From Roseburia sp. (GTDB lineage Bacteria; Bacillota; Clostridia; Oscillospirales; Ruminococcaceae), in contig JAMPCH010000021.1 in assembly GCA_023666265.1 (NCBI GenBank), forward strand, positions 1 through 43,661: DNA of 43,661 nt, read 5' to 3'. Shown here piece after piece: positions 24,887 to 32,065 of the stretch; position 1 is the stretch's first letter; every line of letters begins with the position of its first letter. A program made the position numbers and the translations under genes. The notes under the pieces are model-generated. The model ran no database searches. It saw nothing but the letters and a program-made list of their open reading frames with translations, and was not told where the DNA came from.

Positions 24887-25285
24887 ATGAAGTATGAACT
24901 GACAAAGGATCTCGAGACCGGGAACGCGGTCATCGATCAGGAACACCGCGAGCTTCTCGGCGCGGTCAACCGCTTAGTCGAAGCCTGTGGGCGCGGCGAG
25001 GGGCGCTCGTCGATGGATTCGGTGATCGACTTTCTCGTGAAGTACGTCGACCGCCACTTCGCCCACGAGGAACAGCTGATGAAGACCGCCGGCTACGCGG
25101 GTCTCGCCCCTCACCGCGCCTTTCACGAGGAGTATAAGCGTAAGCTCGGCGAGATCGTCGCCAAGATCCCGCCCTCGGGCGCGTCGATCGGCGACCTCGC
25201 GCTCATTAACGGGCATATCGGGCTTCTCGTCACCCATATCCGTACCGAGGATAAAAAGCTCGGGAAGTATTTACAGGAGAAGTAA
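24887..25285 (+). CDS. Bacteriohemerythrin
   Basis: 132-residue di-iron oxygen-binding protein. All expected ligands are visible: H20 (DQEHRELL), H57 and E61 (HFAHEEQLM), H76 and H80 (PHRAFHEEY), H117 and D122 (HIRTEDKKL). In anaerobes such proteins bind or scavenge oxygen. ATG 24887 follows AAAGAAAGGATG. Its place in a purine cluster that contains an iron-sulfur PurF is suggestive (oxygen protection) but this is inference. Confidence 0.93.
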   Translation: MKYELTKDLETGNAVIDQEHRELLGAVNRLVEACGRGEGRSSMDSVIDFLVKYVDRHFAHEEQLMKTAGYAGLAPHRAFHEEYKRKLGEIVAKIPPSGASIGDLALINGHIGLLVTHIRTEDKKLGKYLQEK

Positions 25286-25312
25286 GTTTGAAAAACCGAA
25301 GATTTTTCAAAC
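25286..25312 (+). other. Intercistronic hairpin
   Basis: GTTTGAAAA/TTTTCAAAC, 9-bp stem. A second one follows directly: GTTTGTGC-CTCG-GCACAAAC (25318-25337). The sequence GTTTGTGCCTCGGC also occurs in the purE leader near 14189. Confidence 0.5.
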
Positions 25313-25367
25313 ACGTTGTTTGTGCCTCGGCACAAACCGACTCCGAAGGAAAGGAATGACCATAACG

Positions 25368-25742
25368 ATGAAATGCGATGAAATTTATCCGACCCTCGTC
25401 GACGACCTTATGGCGCTCAGGGGCGTCGAGCGGGACTATAAGCCCGAATGGGACTGGGTGCGCTTTTCGCTCCGGGGGAAGATGTTCGCCGCGATCTGTG
25501 CGGACGGGACGGACAGCGCCCTCTTAAACATCAAAGCCCAGCCCGACTATAACGAGACGATCCGCCTCCTCCACGAGGATATCAACGAGGGCTATTACAT
25601 GAATAAGGAGCATTGGAACAGCGTTCGGCTCACCGGCTCTGTCCCCTATGAGGTCGTAAAGGATATGTACCTTCGCGGGTATAACCTCGTCCTAAGGAAG
25701 CTCCCGAAAAAGGCGCAGCACGAGATCCTCGAGGACATCTGA
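25368..25742 (+). CDS. MmcQ/YjbR family protein
   Basis: 124-residue protein of the YjbR (CyaY-like fold) family. Recognised by the central phrase FAAICADGTDSALLNIKA and the end SVPYEVVKDMYLRGYNLV followed by LRKLPKK. Members may bind DNA; their role is not settled. I chose ATG 25368 because AAGGAAAGGA stands at the same distance as in purE; ATG 25356 in the same frame is an alternative. Between hemerythrin and the inactive M50 paralogue. Confidence 0.82.
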   Translation: MKCDEIYPTLVDDLMALRGVERDYKPEWDWVRFSLRGKMFAAICADGTDSALLNIKAQPDYNETIRLLHEDINEGYYMNKEHWNSVRLTGSVPYEVVKDMYLRGYNLVLRKLPKKAQHEILEDI

Positions 25743-25769
25743 TCCCGAGATCGGAAGGAGAGTGCTTCA

Positions 25770-26891
25770 ATGAAAAGCTTTGAAAGCGGCGCTTTGCGGG
25801 TCGTCGGGCGGATCGGGCATCTGCTCTTGATCTGGGCGGCGGCGTTTCACGGGGTCTACGCGGTCTTTCCTTATTTTTATGTCGATCTTACCCTCGGCGG
25901 CGGGGTCGTCCTCGCGTTCGTCCCGACGATCCTCCTGCTTCTTATCGCGGTGTTTGTCTCGGGCCGGGTCTTTCGGCTGATCGGCGAGCTTTCGCGGCTG
26001 ATCGCCGTCCCCGTCGCGGGCTGGCGGTTCGTGTCCTTTCGTTTTGGGAAGGCGCGGGGGTCTCGCTGTCTGTTAGACCCGCCGCCGCTCGTAAACGGGG
26101 AATGTTCGTGCGTTTGTTACCTGCTCTGTCACGGGCTGTCGCTCGCATTGCTCGGGCTGATCCTGATCCTCCTCGGCTTCCCCTTCCCGGAGGGAGCGTA
26201 TTTCCTGCGGTTTTTCGGGCTGTTGGCGATCGCCTTCGCGTGGCGGTGTCTGTATCCCGGGGTCTACGGCGGGACGGGGAACGACGGATTACAGCTCCTT
26301 CGGCTGAAAAAAGACCCGCGCTGGAGCGCGGTGATTTGGCTCATACGGCGGGTCACGGTCGACATGGAGCGGGCGGCGACCTTCGGCGATTTCTCCGAGG
26401 AAACGGTGAACGCGCTCATGGACTATCGGTATACCGACCCCTCGCGCGGGGAGGAAACCGTTTTAATGACCTATCGGGCGGCGATCCTATTCGATCGGGG
26501 AGAGGTCGAGGCGGCGCTCGCGGTCTATCAAGAGATCGCCGACAGCGCCGCGCCCGAGCTGTTAAAGGGGCGGGCGTACAACGAGCTTCTCTACGGGGCG
26601 ATCCTACGCGGCGCGTCGGAGGAGGAGCTAAAGCTCCGCCTTAATCTCGTCAACGCGAGTATTTCGCGAACGAGAGCGCCGGACAGTACCGGGCGGCGGC
26701 GCGTGATGCTCGCGCTTCGGCTCTTGATCCAAAAGGACGAGACGCGGGCGGAGGAGGAATATGACGCGCTCCTGGCGCTCGCGAAAAACGCGCCGTTTCG
26801 CGCCCAAGCGGCGCTCGACCTCCGCGAGGCGAAGCGGGTCAGAGAGATTTACAGAAACGAGGCGGGGTCAACTCCTGCCCTAAAGGAATAA
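25770..26891 (+). CDS. Inactive paralogue of the M50-type membrane protein
   Basis: 373 residues, about the same length and layout as the M50 gene product at 23667-24836: membrane segments near 17-35, 45-65, 118-137 and 144-160, then a helical soluble domain. Both share GWRF-SFR after the first motif and a GNDG/TNDG motif, and their C-terminal domains align throughout. In this protein the zinc motif HEAGH is replaced by GELSR (72-76): both histidines are lost and only the glutamate remains. It therefore should not be a peptidase; it may bind substrates or regulate the active paralogue. ATG 25770 follows GGAAGGAGAG. Confidence 0.75.
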   Translation: MKSFESGALRVVGRIGHLLLIWAAAFHGVYAVFPYFYVDLTLGGGVVLAFVPTILLLLIAVFVSGRVFRLIGELSRLIAVPVAGWRFVSFRFGKARGSRCLLDPPPLVNGECSCVCYLLCHGLSLALLGLILILLGFPFPEGAYFLRFFGLLAIAFAWRCLYPGVYGGTGNDGLQLLRLKKDPRWSAVIWLIRRVTVDMERAATFGDFSEETVNALMDYRYTDPSRGEETVLMTYRAAILFDRGEVEAALAVYQEIADSAAPELLKGRAYNELLYGAILRGASEEELKLRLNLVNASISRTRAPDSTGRRRVMLALRLLIQKDETRAEEEYDALLALAKNAPFRAQAALDLREAKRVREIYRNEAGSTPALKE

Positions 26892-26909
26892 GAAAGGAAT
26901 GGTTGTTAC

Positions 26910-28193
26910 ATGGATATTTTGGTAGTAGGCGGCGGCGGGCGCGAACACGCGATCCTCGCCGCGCTCAAAAGATCGCCGCGCGTTGGGCGGCTTTACGCCG
27001 CGCCGGGGAACGGCGGGATCGCCGCCCTCGCGGAATGTTACGACGTTAAGGCGACCGACCTCGACGGGGTCGTCGCGCTCGCCGAGCGGCTAAAGCCCGA
27101 CTATGTCTTCGTCGCGCCCGACGATCCGCTCGTCATGGGTCTCGTCGATCGGCTCGAGGAGCGGGGCTTTAAGACCTTCGGTCCGCGCGCGAACGCCGCG
27201 ATCTTAGAAGGGAGCAAGGTCTTCTCAAAAGCGCTCATGAAAAAATACGCGATCCCGACCGCCGCTTACGAGACCTTCACCGACGCGGAGAAGGCGATCG
27301 CCTATATCCGGGAACAAAATCGCTATCCCGCCGTGATCAAGTGCGACGGCTTGGCCCTCGGGAAGGGGGTCGTCATCGCGGCGAACGAGGTGGAAGCCGA
27401 GGCGGCGGTACGCTCCATGCTTGTCGACGGGAAGTTCGGAAAGAGCGGCGCCGAGATCGTCGTCGAGGAGTTTATGACGGGTCCCGAGGTGACCGTCCTC
27501 GCCTTTACCGATGGCGTATCGGTGAAGCCGATGGTCTCGTCGATGGATCATAAGCGGGCGCTCGACGGCGATAAGGGGCTGAATACGGGCGGTATGGGGA
27601 CGATCGCGCCGAACCCGCTCTATACGCCCGCGATCGCGAAGGAATGTATGGATAACATCTTCCTCCCGACGATCCGCGCCATGGCGAAGGAGGGTCGTCC
27701 CTTTAAGGGCTGTCTCTACTTCGGCTTGATGCTGACCCCGGAGGGGGCGAAGGTCGTCGAGTATAACTGCCGTTTCGGCGACCCCGAGGCGCAGGTCGTC
27801 CTCCCGCTCCTTAAAACCGACCTGACCGAGATCATGGACGCGATCCGCGAGGAGCGGCTCGGGGCGCTCGAGGTCGAATGGGAAAAAGGCGCTTGCGCTT
27901 GTGTCGTACTGGCGAGCGGGGGCTATCCCGAGAAGTACTCGGGCGGTTACCCGATCGCGGGGTTGGACGAAAAGGGACAGCTCCCCGGCGGCGAGGCGTA
28001 TATCTATCACGCGGGAACGAAGCGCGACGGGAACGCCTATCTCACGGCGGGCGGGCGCGTCCTCGGCGTGACCGCCTCGGCGGAGGAGCTGTCAAAGGCG
28101 CTCGAAAAAGCGTACCGCGCCGCCGAAAAGGTATCCTTTGACAAAGTCCATTATCGGAAGGACATCGGAAGGCGAGCGCTCGACAAGGCGTGA
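26910..28193 (+). CDS. purD: Phosphoribosylamine-glycine ligase PurD
   Basis: 427 residues, full length. Joins phosphoribosylamine and glycine with ATP to give GAR. Rossmann-like start MDILVVGGGGREHAILAAL, ATP-grasp residues including VIKCDGLALGKGVVIA (about 143-158) and the metal-binding FGDPEAQVVLP (about 289-299); GLNTGGMGTIAPNP is also typical. ATG 26910 follows AAGAAAGGAAT. It is the last purine gene; the preQ1 aptamer array starts 20 nt after its stop. Confidence 0.97.
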   Translation: MDILVVGGGGREHAILAALKRSPRVGRLYAAPGNGGIAALAECYDVKATDLDGVVALAERLKPDYVFVAPDDPLVMGLVDRLEERGFKTFGPRANAAILEGSKVFSKALMKKYAIPTAAYETFTDAEKAIAYIREQNRYPAVIKCDGLALGKGVVIAANEVEAEAAVRSMLVDGKFGKSGAEIVVEEFMTGPEVTVLAFTDGVSVKPMVSSMDHKRALDGDKGLNTGGMGTIAPNPLYTPAIAKECMDNIFLPTIRAMAKEGRPFKGCLYFGLMLTPEGAKVVEYNCRFGDPEAQVVLPLLKTDLTEIMDAIREERLGALEVEWEKGACACVVLASGGYPEKYSGGYPIAGLDEKGQLPGGEAYIYHAGTKRDGNAYLTAGGRVLGVTASAEELSKALEKAYRAAEKVSFDKVHYRKDIGRRALDKA

Positions 28194-28213
28194 CCTTCCC
28201 AAAAGAAAATACG

Positions 28214-28397
28214 GTGAGTCAGAGAAAACCTCACGCAAATCAAAACTTCGTGAGTTGGAGAAAACCTCACGCAAATCAAAACTTCGTGAGTTGGAGAAAA
28301 CCTCACGTTAAACAAAACTATGTGAGTTCTAGAAAACCTCACATTAAATAAAACTATGTGAGTCCCAGAAAACCTCACATAAATCAAAACTAAGGGG
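28214..28397 (+). promoter_or_regulatory. Tandem array of five preQ1-I riboswitch-like aptamers upstream of queT
   Basis: Five head-to-tail units with an exact 36-nt period begin at 28214, 28250, 28286, 28322 and 28358. Each has GTGAG, an 11-nt loop ending in AAAAC, CTCAC, and a 15-nt A-rich tail with AAAACT. This is the layout of the roughly 34-nt preQ1-I aptamer: P1 stem GTGAG/CTCAC, ligand-pairing C as the last loop base, an A-rich L3, and a pseudoknot between loop and tail. Loop bases TTCTAG (unit 4) match the loop of the Bacillus aptamer. Loop and tail vary together: GGAG with CTTC (unit 2), CTAG with CTA.G (unit 4), CCCAG with CTAAGGGG (unit 5); units 1 and 3 pair less well. No promoter was seen between purD and the array. 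Confidence 0.85.
28358..28397 (+). promoter_or_regulatory. preQ1-I aptamer 5, translation-controlling unit
   Basis: The last unit. Loop TCCCAG can pair with tail CTAAGGGG, so the pseudoknot would hide the queT Shine-Dalgarno bases (GGGG, 28394-28397; ATG at 28407). This matches the known translational mechanism of Thermoanaerobacter-type preQ1-I riboswitches: with preQ1 bound, translation is off. Confidence 0.8.
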
Positions 28398-28406
28398 TAA
28401 AAGAAA

Positions 28407-28919
28407 ATGCAAGCAAACACAAACAACAACAGAAACGGTAAGGCTTTATTTTTGGTACAGGCGGCGCTCATCGCCGCGCTCTACGTCGTATTCACGTATT
28501 TGGCGGCGCTCCTCGGGCTCAGTAGCGGGACGATCCAGATCCGCTTCTCCGAGGCGCTGACGATCCTCCCCTATTTTACGCCGGCGGCGATCTCGGGGCT
28601 TTTTGTCGGGTGCGTGATCGCGAACCTCACGACGGGGGCGATCCTCTGGGACGTGGTATTCGGGAGTATCGCGACCTTGATCGGCGCGGTCGGGACATAT
28701 CTCCTTCGGCGGCGGTCAAAATGGCTCTCGCCGCTCCCGCCGATCCTCGCGAATACGCTGATCGTCCCGTTTGTTTTGACCTACGCCTACGGCGTACCCG
28801 ACGGCGTGCCGTTTTTGATGCTGACCGTCGGGGCGGGCGAGGTGATCTCCTGCGGCTTCCTCGGGCTGGCGCTCTTAAAAAGCCTCGAAAAATATCGAGC
28901 GAGGCTTTTTGAGCGCTGA
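28407..28919 (+). CDS. queT: QueT family transporter (queuosine precursor ECF S component)
   Basis: 170-residue membrane protein with about five to six membrane segments. Family features: AALIAALYVVFTYLA, then IRFSEALTILPYFTPAAISG (about 45-64), then DVVFGSIATLIGA and PPILANTLIVPFVL. QueT is the substrate-binding subunit of an energy-coupling-factor transporter that imports a queuosine precursor such as preQ1; the shared EcfA/EcfT part is encoded elsewhere. ATG 28407 with AAGGGG upstream, inside the riboswitch pseudoknot. The end of the gene forms a hairpin terminator. Regulation by preQ1 is strongly implied by the array. Confidence 0.92.
   Translation: MQANTNNNRNGKALFLVQAALIAALYVVFTYLAALLGLSSGTIQIRFSEALTILPYFTPAAISGLFVGCVIANLTTGAILWDVVFGSIATLIGAVGTYLLRRRSKWLSPLPPILANTLIVPFVLTYAYGVPDGVPFLMLTVGAGEVISCGFLGLALLKSLEKYRARLFER
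28869..28919 (+). terminator. Hairpin terminator overlapping the end of queT
   Basis: Long stem inside the last codons: GCGCTC (28869-28874) with GAGCGC (28911-28916), and AAAAAGCCTC with GAGGCTTTTT. The T5 run is in the right arm, so termination is plausible but not classical. Confidence 0.5.
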
Positions 28920-28944
28920 TTTACCGCTTTTTTGAAAAAAAGGC

Positions 28945-28973
28945 TTGACAAACGGCGGCGGACGTGATAAAAT
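28945..28973 (+). promoter_or_regulatory. Sigma-A promoter of the rplU operon
   Basis: -35 consensus TTGACA (28945-28950), 17-bp spacer, -10 TAAAAT (28968-28973). Predicted start near 28980. Confidence 0.82.
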
Positions 28974-28979
28974 AATAAA

Positions 28980-29252
28980 GCCGCGTATGACGGGCTGTTT
29001 TAAGTGTGCTTATTTTTAAGGCTACACCGCATAATTATTGTCGTTCTAGTGGCAGTCAGATTTTTCGTCAGATTGTACAGAATTTTTGCGGGAAGGCTTT
29101 GTGCCTTTCAAAAAAATTATGTGCGATATGGCGGAAAATATGGCTGTCAATGGGACGGCAAAGCCGTAGGCGGTAATTGTGCGGTGTTGCCTTAGTGGAA
29201 GGTGAGCGCCGCCCGCCGATAGCGAGACTTATGAAAAGAGGGAAAAATAAAA
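28980..29252 (+). ncRNA. Long structured leader, putative ribosomal protein L21 leader
   Basis: About 270 nt of untranslated RNA between the promoter and rplU. Contains hairpins such as ACGGC-AAA-GCCGT (near 29155) and GC-rich pairs around 29170-29225, ending GATAGCGAGACTTATG. Its position before rplU-prp-rpmA fits the Firmicutes L21 leader, an autoregulatory RNA that binds a product of the operon. I infer the class mainly from position. Confidence 0.45.
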
Positions 29253-29561
29253 ATGTACGCAGTCATTGAAACGGGCGGTAAACAGTATCAGGTTCGGGTC
29301 GGCGACGAGATCTTCGTCGAGAAGCTCGGCGTAGACGAGGGCGAGGTCGTATTCGATAAGGTCGTCCTGATCGGCGGAGACGGGAGCGTTACTGCGGGGA
29401 CGCCGTATGTCGGCGGGGCGACGGTAAAAGCGACCCTACTCAAAAACGGGAAGGGGAAAAAGATCACGGTCTTTACCTATAAGCCCAAGAAGGGCGAAAA
29501 GCGCTGTATGGGTCACAGACAGCCTTATAGTAAGGTCAAGATCGAAGCGATCAACGCGTAA
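29253..29561 (+). CDS. rplU: Ribosomal protein L21
   Basis: 102 residues, normal length. Starts [25 protein letters not shown] and contains the RNA-binding end [24 protein letters not shown] (given in parts: [14 protein letters not shown]). Part of the large ribosomal subunit, contacting 23S rRNA. It has a long leader with a strong promoter, and its stop overlaps the start of prp (TAATG). Confidence 0.97.
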
Positions 29562-29908
29562 TGATCAAGGCGGAATTTTTAAGCTATAGCGGCGGGTACG
29601 TCGGCTTCTCGATCACGGGACACGCGGGCGCGGGCGAATACGGACACGACATCGTCTGCTCGGCGGTCACGTCGGCGGTGATGCTGACGGTGAATATGAT
29701 CACGGACTATCTCTTCTCCGAGGCGGAGGCACAGGTCGGAAAGAATAAAGTCCTTTTTGTCTTAAAGAAGCCCGAATCCGCTACCTCGATCGCCGCGCGA
29801 CAGGTCATCGCCTCGTTTAAGGCGCACCTCGCCGAGATCGAAAAAGACAGTCCGGGGACGATCCGGATCACGGAAAAAGAGGCGAAAGCCCGGAAAGGAA
29901 GAGAATAA
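29561..29908 (+). CDS. prp: Ribosomal-processing cysteine protease Prp
   Basis: 115 residues (YsxB family). Cleaves the N-terminal extension of ribosomal protein L27. The catalytic pair is visible: H21 in TGHAG and C33 in [11 protein letters not shown]. Starts on the last base of the L21 stop codon and ends 2 nt before rpmA, whose product carries the matching cleavage site. This rplU-prp-rpmA order is typical of Firmicutes. Confidence 0.93.
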
Positions 29909-29910
29909 TC

Positions 29911-30192
29911 ATGATTAAGTTAGATTTACAGTACTTCGCGCATAAAAAGGGAATGGGCTCGACGAAGAACGGACGCGACAGCGAGTCGAAGCGGCTCGGC
30001 GTTAAGCGCGCGGACGGTCAGTTCGTCCTCGCGGGGAATATCCTCGTAAGACAGCGCGGGACGCATATCCATCCCGGTAAAAACGTCATGAGAGGCTCGG
30101 ACGATACCTTGTTCGCCGTCGCCGACGGGACGGTCAGGTTCGAGCGCTTGGGGAAGGATCGCAAGCAGGTAAGCGTTTACGTTTCCGAGTAA
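29911..30192 (+). CDS. rpmA: Ribosomal protein L27 with cleavable N-terminal extension
   Basis: 93 residues. The N-terminus [14 protein letters not shown] carries the Firmicutes extension that Prp removes between F9 and A10, giving the mature end [18 protein letters not shown]27 reaches the peptidyl-transferase centre, so removal is needed for function. The rest ([23 protein letters not shown], shown here in short as [12 protein letters not shown]) is standard. Followed by a clear terminator. Confidence 0.97.
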
Positions 30193-30196
30193 GAAT

Positions 30197-30229
30197 AAAA
30201 AGGCGGGAGCTTCACTTTCCGCCTTTTTT
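30197..30229 (+). terminator. Rho-independent terminator after rpmA
   Basis: 10-bp stem AAAAAGGCGG/CCGCCTTTTT with a 12-nt loop, ending in T6. It closes the rplU-prp-rpmA operon. Confidence 0.88.
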
Positions 30230-30282
30230 ATTTCAAGATCGGTTTTATGGAGAAAAAACGGGTAAAATAAGGGGGTTCGCCG

Positions 30283-31560
30283 ATGTTCGTCGATATAGTT
30301 AAAATTACGGTCAAAGCGGGGGACGGCGGGAACGGCGCGGTCTCTTTTCACCGCGAGAAGTATGTCAACGCCGGAGGTCCCGACGGCGGGAACGGCGGTA
30401 AGGGCGGGGACGTCGTCTTTCGGGCGAAGGACAGCCTCTCGACCCTCATCGACTTTCGCTATAAAAAGAAATACACCGCCGAGAACGGCGCGCCCGGCGC
30501 GGGAAAGCGAAGCTCGGGGAAGTCCGCGCCCGATACCGTGATCTATGTCCCGCGCGGGACGCTCGTCCGCGATACGGCGACGGGGCGCATTTTAGCCGAC
30601 CTCTCGGGCGACGATCCCGTGATCGTCGCCAAGGGCGGTAAGGGCGGGAAGGGGAATATGAACTTCGCGACCCCGACCCGCCAGATCCCGCGCTTCGCGA
30701 AGCCCGGCTATCCCGGGGAACAGTATGACCTCACCCTCGAGTTAAAGCTCCTCGCGGACGTGGGCTTGGTCGGCTTCCCGAATGTCGGGAAGTCGAGCCT
30801 CATCAGCGTCGTGAGCGCGGCGAAGCCCGAGATCGCGAACTATCACTTCACGACGATCACGCCCGTCCTCGGCGTGGTCAAGTTTGAGGAGAAGTCCTTC
30901 GTCATGGCGGATATCCCGGGGCTGATCGAGGGGGCGAGCGACGGCGCGGGTCTCGGTCACGCGTTTTTACGCCATGTCGAGCGCTGTCGCCTAATCCTCC
31001 ACATCGTCGACGTATCGGAGAGCGAGGGGCGCGACGCAGTCGACGATCTCATAAAGATCGAGCGCGAGCTTGAGCGTTTTTCCCCCGCGCTCGCGGAGCG
31101 ACCGCGTATGCTCGCGGCGAATAAGGCGGATCTCGCCTCGGCGGAACAGATCGAGCGCTTACGCGCCTACGCGGCGGAGCGCGAGATCCCGTTTTTCGTC
31201 GTCTCCGCCGCGACGACGGCGGGGACGCGCGAGCTCGTCGCGGCGGTCGCCGCGCGGCTCGATACGCTCCCGCCGATGCTCCGATATGAGCCGGAGCCGC
31301 CGACCCTCGCCGAGCTCGATAAGATCGAGAAGGAGAAACGCGCCTTCACCGTTAAAAAGGCGGACGCGCATTACTTCCTCGTGGACGCGCCGTGGCTCGC
31401 GCCGATCTTAAGCTCGGTCAATATGGAGGATTACGAGAGCCTCCAGTATTTCCAGCGCGTCCTACGCGGGAGCGGGATCATCGACGCGCTCGAGGCGGCG
31501 GGGATCGAGGAAAAGGACACCGTCGCGATCTTTGACTTTGAGTTCGACTATGTGCGATAA
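30283..31560 (+). CDS. obgE: GTPase Obg (CgtA)
   Basis: 425 residues. Essential GTPase that binds the 50S subunit and links assembly to growth and stress. Glycine-rich Obg fold at 1-158 (GGPDGGNGGKGGDVVF), G domain from about 159 with GFPNVGKSSL (G1), the later DIPGLIEGAS (G3) and NKAD (G4), and a C-terminal OCT domain (about 345-425), the Firmicutes form. ATG 30283 follows TAAGGGGG. It has its own transcription unit or reads through from the rpmA operon. Confidence 0.97.
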   Translation: MFVDIVKITVKAGDGGNGAVSFHREKYVNAGGPDGGNGGKGGDVVFRAKDSLSTLIDFRYKKKYTAENGAPGAGKRSSGKSAPDTVIYVPRGTLVRDTATGRILADLSGDDPVIVAKGGKGGKGNMNFATPTRQIPRFAKPGYPGEQYDLTLELKLLADVGLVGFPNVGKSSLISVVSAAKPEIANYHFTTITPVLGVVKFEEKSFVMADIPGLIEGASDGAGLGHAFLRHVERCRLILHIVDVSESEGRDAVDDLIKIERELERFSPALAERPRMLAANKADLASAEQIERLRAYAAEREIPFFVVSAATTAGTRELVAAVAARLDTLPPMLRYEPEPPTLAELDKIEKEKRAFTVKKADAHYFLVDAPWLAPILSSVNMEDYESLQYFQRVLRGSGIIDALEAAGIEEKDTVAIFDFEFDYVR

Positions 31561-31657
31561 AGAAGGGGTGAGCGGAGCGGCACGCCTTCCCAAAAAATAA
31601 AGAATATTTCTTTTTGAGAATTTTGTCCCCGGGGGACGAAAAATTTCGTTTCCTATT

Positions 31658-32065
31658 ATGGAGGAACCAAGATCGGAACTTATGGAAGCAATGACAAAAG
31701 CGGAGGCGAAGCGGCTCAGCCCCGCGACGCTCGCCTTTTACGGCGACTGTGTTTATGAGCGGCTCGTCCGTCGGCGGGTCGTCGCGGCGGGGAGTCGCCC
31801 CTCAAACGAGCTTCATAAAGCCTCGGTCGAGCGGGTACGCGCGTCTTTTCAGTCCGTCGCCTTTGACCGCCTCCTTCCCCTTTTGAGCGAGGAGGAGCGC
31901 GATATTTTAAAGCGCGGGCGGAATACGACGGGGCTTAACGCGCCGCGCTCGAGTAACTCCGCCGAATATCACCGCGCGACGGCGGTCGAGGCGCTTTTCG
32001 GCTATCTCGATCTCGTCGGCGAAACGGCGCGGCTCGAGACGCTTTTTAACGCAATTTATGAGTAA
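31658..32065 (+). CDS. mrnC: Mini-ribonuclease III
   Basis: 135 residues as drawn. RNase III catalytic domain without a double-stranded RNA-binding domain; in Bacillus it matures 23S rRNA. Seen: LSPATLAFYGDCVYERLVRR (about 20-39), the E/D-rich LLSEEERDILKRGRN, and the closing VEALFGYLDLVG. The start is uncertain: ATG 31658 has no ribosome-binding site before it (GGAGGAA lies just after it), and ATG 31682 or 31691 in the same frame are possible, giving 127 or 124 residues. The downstream gene begins 13 nt after its stop. Confidence 0.9.
   Translation: MEEPRSELMEAMTKAEAKRLSPATLAFYGDCVYERLVRRRVVAAGSRPSNELHKASVERVRASFQSVAFDRLLPLLSEEERDILKRGRNTTGLNAPRSSNSAEYHRATAVEALFGYLDLVGETARLETLFNAIYE

What the first reader, a model, noticed from the sequence alone, without database searches (positions are those of the whole stretch)
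28214..28397. Five tandem preQ1-I riboswitch aptamers in front of queT
Seen: five units with an exact 36-nt period and no linkers. Each has GTGAG, an 11-nt loop ending AAAAC, CTCAC, then an A-rich tail with AAAACT. Known: preQ1-I aptamers are about 34 nt, made of a 5-bp P1, a loop whose last C pairs with preQ1, an A-rich strand and a loop-tail pseudoknot; QueT imports queuosine precursors. Loop and tail bases vary together in units 2, 4 and 5, supporting the pseudoknot. The fifth unit covers the queT ribosome-binding site. In units 1-4 the pseudoknot may use the first G of the next P1, so neighbours could be coupled. I know of no described array of this size. Possible outcomes: a steeper or broader dose response, preQ1 buffering, or reduced ribosome access to queT within the purine transcript.
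Basis: partly seen in the sequence, partly recalled or inferred. Interest (0 to 1): 0.92.

Follow-up and report, generated by a model that had tools for sequence, protein, structure and literature searches.

The report
Five-fold preQ1 riboswitch array before queT
A bacterium carries five head-to-tail copies of a tiny RNA sensor for a vitamin-like molecule (preQ1) in front of the gene that imports it, where its relatives carry one copy; chains of this sensor seem not to have been described before.

Summary
In detail: five 36-nt units without linkers at 28214-28393, the last running into the queT Shine-Dalgarno (SD) sequence. Rfam's preQ1-I model gives at most 13.4 bits (cutoff 39), but none of 10 tested relatives' loci passes it either. 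A model built only from relatives' single queT-leader aptamers has the five units as its five best hits in this genome (E 5e-9 to 3e-3; next 0.24). Of 29 close queT orthologues in the genus, 27 have one aptamer; no other array turned up in sampled genomes of genus, order, class and phylum. Those relatives are type I (UC before P1); all five units are type II-like (AC). TGT was found, QueC and QueF were not, so import probably feeds queuosine. Loop-tail covariation is weak (16 of 120 permutations do as well). Because all P1 strands are identical, upstream copies can capture the last unit's P1: predicted ligand-free P1 formation is 1.00 alone, 0.09 in context. A 2022 survey lists preQ1-I among classes not found in tandem. 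Likely an OFF switch at unit 5; the role of units 1-4 is untested.

The parts
28214..28249 (+). Aptamer unit 1 (P1 GTGAG/CTCAC, loop TCAGAGAAAAC)
   Evidence: relatives-only model 21.3 bits, E 0.0033 in the whole genome
28250..28285 (+). Aptamer unit 2 (loop TTGGAGAAAAC; pseudoknot GGAG/CUUC possible)
   Evidence: 27.9 bits, E 2.8e-5
28286..28321 (+). Aptamer unit 3 (loop as unit 2, pseudoknot tail as unit 4; weakest pseudoknot)
   Evidence: 27.8 bits, E 3.0e-5, but only 6.5 bits in the window-only run
28322..28357 (+). Aptamer unit 4 (loop TTCTAGAAAAC; UAG/CUA pseudoknot; its P1 3' strand can pair with unit 5's P1 5' strand)
   Evidence: 28.1 bits, E 2.4e-5
28358..28397 (+). Aptamer unit 5, with the SD AAGGGG (28392-28397) in its pseudoknot (CCC/GGG)
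   Evidence: 39.8 bits, E 4.8e-9
28407..28919 (+). queT, queuosine precursor transporter
   Evidence: PF06177 E 3.8e-46
26910..28193 (+). purD, directly upstream; probably on the same transcript (no promoter-like + strand site between its start and queT)
   Evidence: GARS domains; promoter scan of 26700-29300

Best explanation
The region is a chain of five preQ1-I aptamers (type II-like, AC before P1), most likely derived from the single queT-leader aptamer of the genus. Unit 5 is the output: preQ1 binding closes its pseudoknot over the SD and stops QueT translation when preQ1 is plentiful. Units 1-4 keep the predicted contact positions and probably bind preQ1 too. Because all P1 strands are identical, a free upstream unit, unit 4 above all, can capture the P1 strand of unit 5 and keep the SD open; when preQ1 fills the chain, every unit folds on its own and unit 5 shuts the gene. 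The chain would thus turn a pre-folded aptamer into a preQ1-dependent one with a moderately steeper response. Shown: repeat, homology, gene, no second array in the samples searched. Inferred: ligand, OFF direction, strand exchange.
For: Relatives-only model R2 has the five units as its top five hits in the genome. 27 of 29 close queT orthologues in the genus have a single aptamer at the same place. SD inside unit 5's CCC/GGG pseudoknot. No change among the units in P1, loop U1, A5, G6, the specificity C or AAAACU. Predicted ligand-free P1 of unit 5: 1.00 alone, 0.09 with 150 nt upstream, with unit 4-unit 5 strand pairing at 0.77-0.85; of 61 single aptamers with P1 at 0.9 or more alone, 3 fall to 0.2 or less with 150 nt upstream. 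With a ligand bonus on all units, midpoint slope 1.25-1.72 for 2-5 units. TGT found; QueC and QueF not found.
Against: Rfam RF00522 at most 13.4 bits against a cutoff of 39, and the array is not among the 11 weak RF00522 matches listed for the genome. Pseudoknot matching not significant; unit 3 forms only two pairs. Ligand-free P1 below 0.5 is not special to the array: 26 of 108 single aptamers show it even in short context. The folding model ignores pseudoknots and co-transcriptional order, in which each P1 hairpin would form first and could stay. One genome, no strain variation, no data on ligand binding. The predicted steepness is modest and does not grow with unit number beyond two (coarse grid).
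Confidence: 0.5

Rival explanations
1. Only unit 5 regulates queT. Units 1-4 are recent slippage or recombination copies that cost little and have no role.
For: Unit 5 scores best (39.8 bits) and alone has the SD. Units 1 and 2 are 34 of 36 identical, and unit 3 looks like a hybrid of a unit 2 head and a unit 4-like tail, as recombining repeats do. Array found in one genome only in the samples searched.
Against: All 10 variable columns avoid P1, the specificity C and AAAACT. Idle copies are predicted to disturb unit 5's P1, so they are unlikely to be neutral.
Confidence: 0.3
2. Units 1-4 act indirectly: ligand-bound pseudoknots in a row block a ribosome standby site, alter RNA decay or pausing, or bind up preQ1.
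For: The A-rich tails between hairpins would be open to 30S/S1 when unbound (inference from the sequence); ligand-dependent effects on pausing and on translation without strong SD burial are known for single preQ1-I riboswitches (PMC11625349 section 9 part 1).
Against: No direct evidence here; buffering by five sites on one mRNA would need high transcript numbers (inference).
Confidence: 0.13
3. The units are not preQ1 aptamers but protein-binding RNA or DNA repeats.
For: Rfam cutoff not reached; tandem identical hairpins would also suit a multimeric binder (inference).
Against: Best five hits of a relatives-only preQ1-I model, same gene, same position relative to the SD.
Confidence: 0.05
4. 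Assembly artefact: one aptamer was multiplied in a draft genome.
For: Draft assembly of 98 contigs, no reads at hand.
Against: There are four distinct loops and four distinct tails among the five units, and the array is 180 bp, within short-read reach (inference).
Confidence: 0.02

Closest known systems
preQ1-I type II riboswitch (Thermoanaerobacter tengcongensis, Bacillus subtilis)
   Same: 5-bp P1, AC before the 3' P1 strand, loop G able to pair with the C of AAAAC (the G11-C30 ceiling pair), A-rich tail, SD in or next to the pseudoknot (type II rule from PMC11625349 section 4)
   Different: Described as single aptamers; here five overlapping units, and an Rfam score far below cutoff
preQ1-I type I single riboswitch of queT in the same genus and order
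   Same: Same gene; in many the same P1 (GTGAG/CTCAC); tail ending in AAAACU; same place before the SD
   Different: One unit, mostly UUCG loop and UC before P1, in many an extra hairpin; type I binds two stacked preQ1 per aptamer (PMC11625349)
Tandem glycine riboswitch (homologous aptamers, one expression platform)
   Same: Several like aptamers feed one output
   Different: Two aptamers per platform there; five here, no linkers, neighbours share bases
Pseudo-cooperative tandem riboswitches (c-di-GMP-I, TPP, glutamine)
   Same: Repeated aptamers for one ligand in one leader
   Different: Those are independently working riboswitches (PMC9481103 passages); here only unit 5 has a visible output

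Membership tests
preQ1-I riboswitch (RF00522) | Reaches Rfam gathering score (39 bits) | tested here: not met
   0 hits in the window; best 13.4 bits on unit 4, 10.8 on unit 5. 0 of 10 relative loci pass either; in a loose search of 8 relative loci RF00522 was listed for 5, at 19.4-31.6 bits
preQ1-I riboswitch (RF00522) | Homology to preQ1-I aptamers | tested here: met
   Relatives-only model R2: the five units are the five best hits in the genome (150 of 1481 first-look candidates scored)
preQ1-I riboswitch (RF00522) | 5-bp P1 closed by a loop whose last base is the specificity C | tested here: met
   5 of 5 units
preQ1-I riboswitch (RF00522) | Loop-tail pseudoknot P2 | tested here: inconclusive
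   Strong in unit 5, possible in 2 and 4, poor in 1 and 3; 16 of 120 permutations do as well
preQ1-I riboswitch (RF00522) | Lies before a queuosine gene | tested here: met
   queT, PF06177 E 3.8e-46
preQ1-I riboswitch (RF00522) | Binds preQ1 and controls the gene | not testable with these tools
   Needs ITC, in-line probing and reporters
preQ1-I type I | UC before the 3' strand of P1 | tested here: not met
   0 of 5 units; 27 of 27 single aptamers before the close queT orthologues of the genus have it
preQ1-I type II | AC before the 3' strand of P1, and loop G able to pair with the tail C | tested here: met
   5 of 5 units; rule and numbering from PMC11625349 section 4
Pseudo-cooperative tandem riboswitch | Each aptamer has its own expression platform | tested here: not met
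   SD only at unit 5; no + strand terminator-like site in 26700-29300 by the simple scan
Cooperative multi-aptamer riboswitch (glycine type) | Several aptamers with one platform and cooperative binding | tested here: inconclusive
   Anatomy fits; binding not testable here; model slope 1.25-1.72

The most novel reading that the evidence does not exclude
A five-site chain of mutually coupled minimal aptamers. Neighbours are linked twice: the pseudoknot of each unit can use the first G of the next unit's P1, and every P1 strand can swap partners with its neighbours. preQ1 binding spreads folding along the chain to the last unit, giving a multi-site switch built from one 36-nt module, with a change from type I (two ligands in one pocket) to five one-ligand pockets.
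Probability: 0.27. Interest if true: 0.9.

Novelty: new variant of a known kind. Interest (0 to 1): 0.72.

Why it matters
The one dedicated survey of tandem riboswitches that I saw (PMC9481103: passages and one section) lists preQ1-I among classes not found in tandem, and the largest same-class stacks in the passages that I saw are quadruplet glycine aptamers. A natural series of five 36-nt aptamers, with a one-aptamer state in close relatives, makes the question of what extra aptamers buy directly testable by removing units. It also suggests that Rfam's cutoff hides preQ1-I aptamers in this order of bacteria.

Tried and rejected
Rfam as the deciding test: set aside, because the single aptamers of relatives that I tested fail it as well. 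A general two-unit pattern over genome contigs (84,980 species by the tool's description): 87 stretches, and 20 in viral contigs. Of 108 matches outside the window, 24 had at least 4 of 5 P1 pairs and were printed, 6 had all 5, and none of the 24 showed a second unit by eye; the other 84 were not printed. The genome scan may leave out the window's own or very near records, and its pattern allows one loop length only. Covariation of loop and tail as proof of the pseudoknot: not significant. A ligand model with Vienna hairpin motifs responded in the last unit only, so I took it that one motif alone was kept, and replaced it. A first regex missed the units because it kept one loop length per start; replaced. 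A leader peptide or coding role: of the ORFs of 60 aa or more listed in 25000-32000, those that cross the array are on the minus strand and follow from a period divisible by three; not pursued. The published sequences of the T. tengcongensis and B. subtilis aptamers were not found in PMC3905878 (passages), so my alignment to them rests on the residue numbers in PMC11625349 and on recall.

Full report
What is there. Five units of exactly 36 nt without linkers fill 28214-28393 on the + strand. Each is GTGAG, an 11-nt loop ending AGAAAAC, CTCAC and an A-rich tail with AAAACT. The last unit runs into AAGGGG (28392-28397), the SD of the gene at 28407-28919, which is QueT (PF06177, E 3.8e-46). purD ends at 28193, and no promoter-like + strand site was found between purD's start and queT, so the array is probably in a purD-queT transcript (inference).

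Is it a preQ1-I aptamer? Rfam at its cutoff finds nothing in the window; with a loose threshold RF00522 gives 13.4 bits for unit 4 and 10.8 for unit 5 against a cutoff of 39. A loose whole-genome search lists 11 weak matches, best 16.4 bits, none of them the array (150 of 686 candidates scored). This test is weak here: of 10 relative loci, 9 with a single aptamer and one (L265) by its R2 match, 0 pass the cutoff; in a loose search of 8 relative loci RF00522 was listed for 5, at 19.4-31.6 bits, still above our units. I therefore built a model (R2) from 17 single aptamers of relatives, none from the window. In the whole genome its five best hits are the five units (39.8, 28.1, 27.9, 27.8, 21.3 bits; E 4.8e-9 to 0.0033); the next has E 0.24. 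In the window alone with filters off, units 5, 2, 1 and 4 are the top four and unit 3 scores only 6.5 bits in a trimmed form, probably because matches may not overlap and neighbours share tail bases.

Relatives. The array as DNA, searched in 71 genomes of the genus, matched in full only here; the next best were single-unit stretches (E 3.3e-5). A QueT search of the same 71 genomes gave 50 matches; 29 besides our own are close (E 1.3e-59 or better), 20 are distant. 27 of the 29 carry one aptamer before queT; in L166 and L170 none was seen. All 27 end the loop in UC (type I). The nearest in form, L036/L037, has the same P1 and a tail like unit 3's, but loop TTCGCAAAATC. The closest QueT proteins (73-74% identity, L010, L011, L154) have P1 GCGAG, a 12-nt loop and an added hairpin. 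All five window units instead read AAC at the end of the loop, with G at loop position 6 able to pair with the C of AAAAC, as the review gives for type II (G5-C16, C7+-G11-C30; PMC11625349 section 4). AC-type leaders do occur in the genus before the distant QueT group (seven loci), but with a different loop and tail. So copy number and subtype both changed in this lineage, or the unit came from elsewhere. The motif AGTNNNAGAAAACCT followed by AAAACT occurs in 1 of 398 genomes of a phylum sample, five times, all in the array.

Is the array unique? A two-unit model from the array (R1) matched 2 of 394 sampled genomes of the order, ours and one with a single aptamer, and 1 of 391 of the class, ours. 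R2 matched 224 of 394 genomes of the order; ours alone had five matches, no other more than three. I searched 125 chosen loci with R2 (65, 20 and 40; some cover the same place twice): apart from our own, no array of complete units. L019, L020 and L253 gave split hits at an inserted hairpin, L165 and L270 a weak extra hit. The further matches of genomes with two or three were not all listed, so I did not check all of them for adjacency. Searches over 40 genomes use stricter filters and can miss weak units; a single-unit model scores few candidates per genome there (15).

Pseudoknot and selection. Ten of 36 columns vary, with at least 13 changes. None lies in the ten P1 columns, the first loop U, the specificity C or AAAACT. 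By hypergeometric arithmetic done by hand, ten variable columns would all miss the 17 columns P1 + U + C + AAAAC with a chance of about 4e-4; but units copied from one another are not independent, and I chose the column set after seeing the alignment, from known contacts. Pseudoknot pairing is good in unit 5 (CCC/GGG beside G-C and A-U), fair in units 2 and 4, poor in 1 and 3; matched loop-tail pairs score 42 against a permutation mean of 35.4, reached by 16 of 120 permutations, or 12 of 120 by duplex energy. Beyond the five pairs of P1 a sixth pair is C-G in units 2 and 3, U-A in 4 and 5 and broken in 1. The tail G that 102 of 109 single aptamers have (the other 7 have A) is, in units 1-4, the first G of the next unit's P1, so neighbours overlap.

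How it may work. Single preQ1-I riboswitches before queT repress translation when preQ1 binds (PMC11625349 section 9 part 1; L. monocytogenes queT, PMC12519234 passages). Unit 5 fits this. For units 1-4 I tested strand exchange in silico. Alone, unit 5's P1 forms with probability 1.00; with 150 nt upstream it falls to 0.09, while unit 4's 3' strand pairs with unit 5's 5' strand at 0.77-0.85. As controls, of 108 single aptamers P1 reaches 0.5 in 82 in short context and 84 with 150 nt upstream; 61 have 0.9 or more alone and 3 of these drop to 0.2 or less with upstream sequence. So a loss on adding upstream sequence is rare, though a poor P1 as such is not. With a ligand bonus on all units, midpoint slopes are 1.72, 1.25, 1.30 and 1.36 for 2, 3, 4 and 5 units on a coarse grid; the model predicts a threshold and a mild rise in steepness, mostly from the second unit. 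These runs ignore pseudoknots and folding during transcription. The leader 28205-28430 folds more stably than shuffles (z -2.15; 2 of 200 as good).

Physiology. The genome (99.8% complete) has TGT; no match to QueC (the same search rings in 12 of 14 control genomes) or QueF (8 of 14) was found, so it probably imports preQ1 or a later form through QueT rather than making it (inference).

Literature. Sherlock et al. 2022 (PMC9481103; passages and the section on classes without tandems) list preQ1-I, II and III as not found in tandem, and report glycine quadruplets. Searches: 'tandem preQ1' gave 0 papers; 'preQ1' with 'riboswitches in tandem' gave that paper only; 'preQ1', 'tandem', 'riboswitch' gave 61 papers, 30 listed, and a five-term search from 2022 gave 9, none with a preQ1 array in title or start of abstract; a queT-preQ1 search gave 7, 6 listed, likewise. 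In PMC8752633 and PMC11625349 the passages with 'tandem' do not concern preQ1 aptamer arrays. The library lacks most subscription papers and all preprints.

Noticed in passing
L026-L032, just upstream of a more distant QueT-like gene in seven other species of the genus: A different conserved leader: stem like GGTG/CACC, in most a loop with CTTGATAAC, tail AAAACAAGGAG, so CUUG can pair with CAAG at the SD. It looks like a type II preQ1-I riboswitch for a second queT lineage.
   Followed up: partly
L250 and L251 (two genomes of another genus of the family), L268-L270: Single aptamers with unusual specificity ends: TCGCAAGAAC (AC) and TCGCAATTCC (CC) instead of UC. CC could mean altered recognition.
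   Followed up: no
L253:501-566, minus strand: A single aptamer whose inserted hairpin (GGGCG..CGCCC) plus the common tail itself scores 39.5 bits against the full model R2, so it may offer two alternative P1 stems for one tail.
   Followed up: no
many loci of the genus, e.g. L012-L019 and L161-L165: Between P1 and the tail these single aptamers hold an extra hairpin of variable sequence that is absent from L036, L037 and from the array.
   Followed up: no
window 28877-28910: Arms AAAAAGCCTCG and CGAGGCTTTTT overlap the 3' end of queT, a possible + strand terminator inside the coding region by eye (the scan did not call it on that strand); a strong promoter-like site (TTGACA-17-TAAAAT with TG) at 28945-28973 precedes the L21 gene.
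   Followed up: no
RF00522 in general: Rfam's preQ1-I cutoff of 39 bits is missed by 10 of 10 tested loci of this order, so censuses based on Rfam may undercount type I aptamers.
   Followed up: partly
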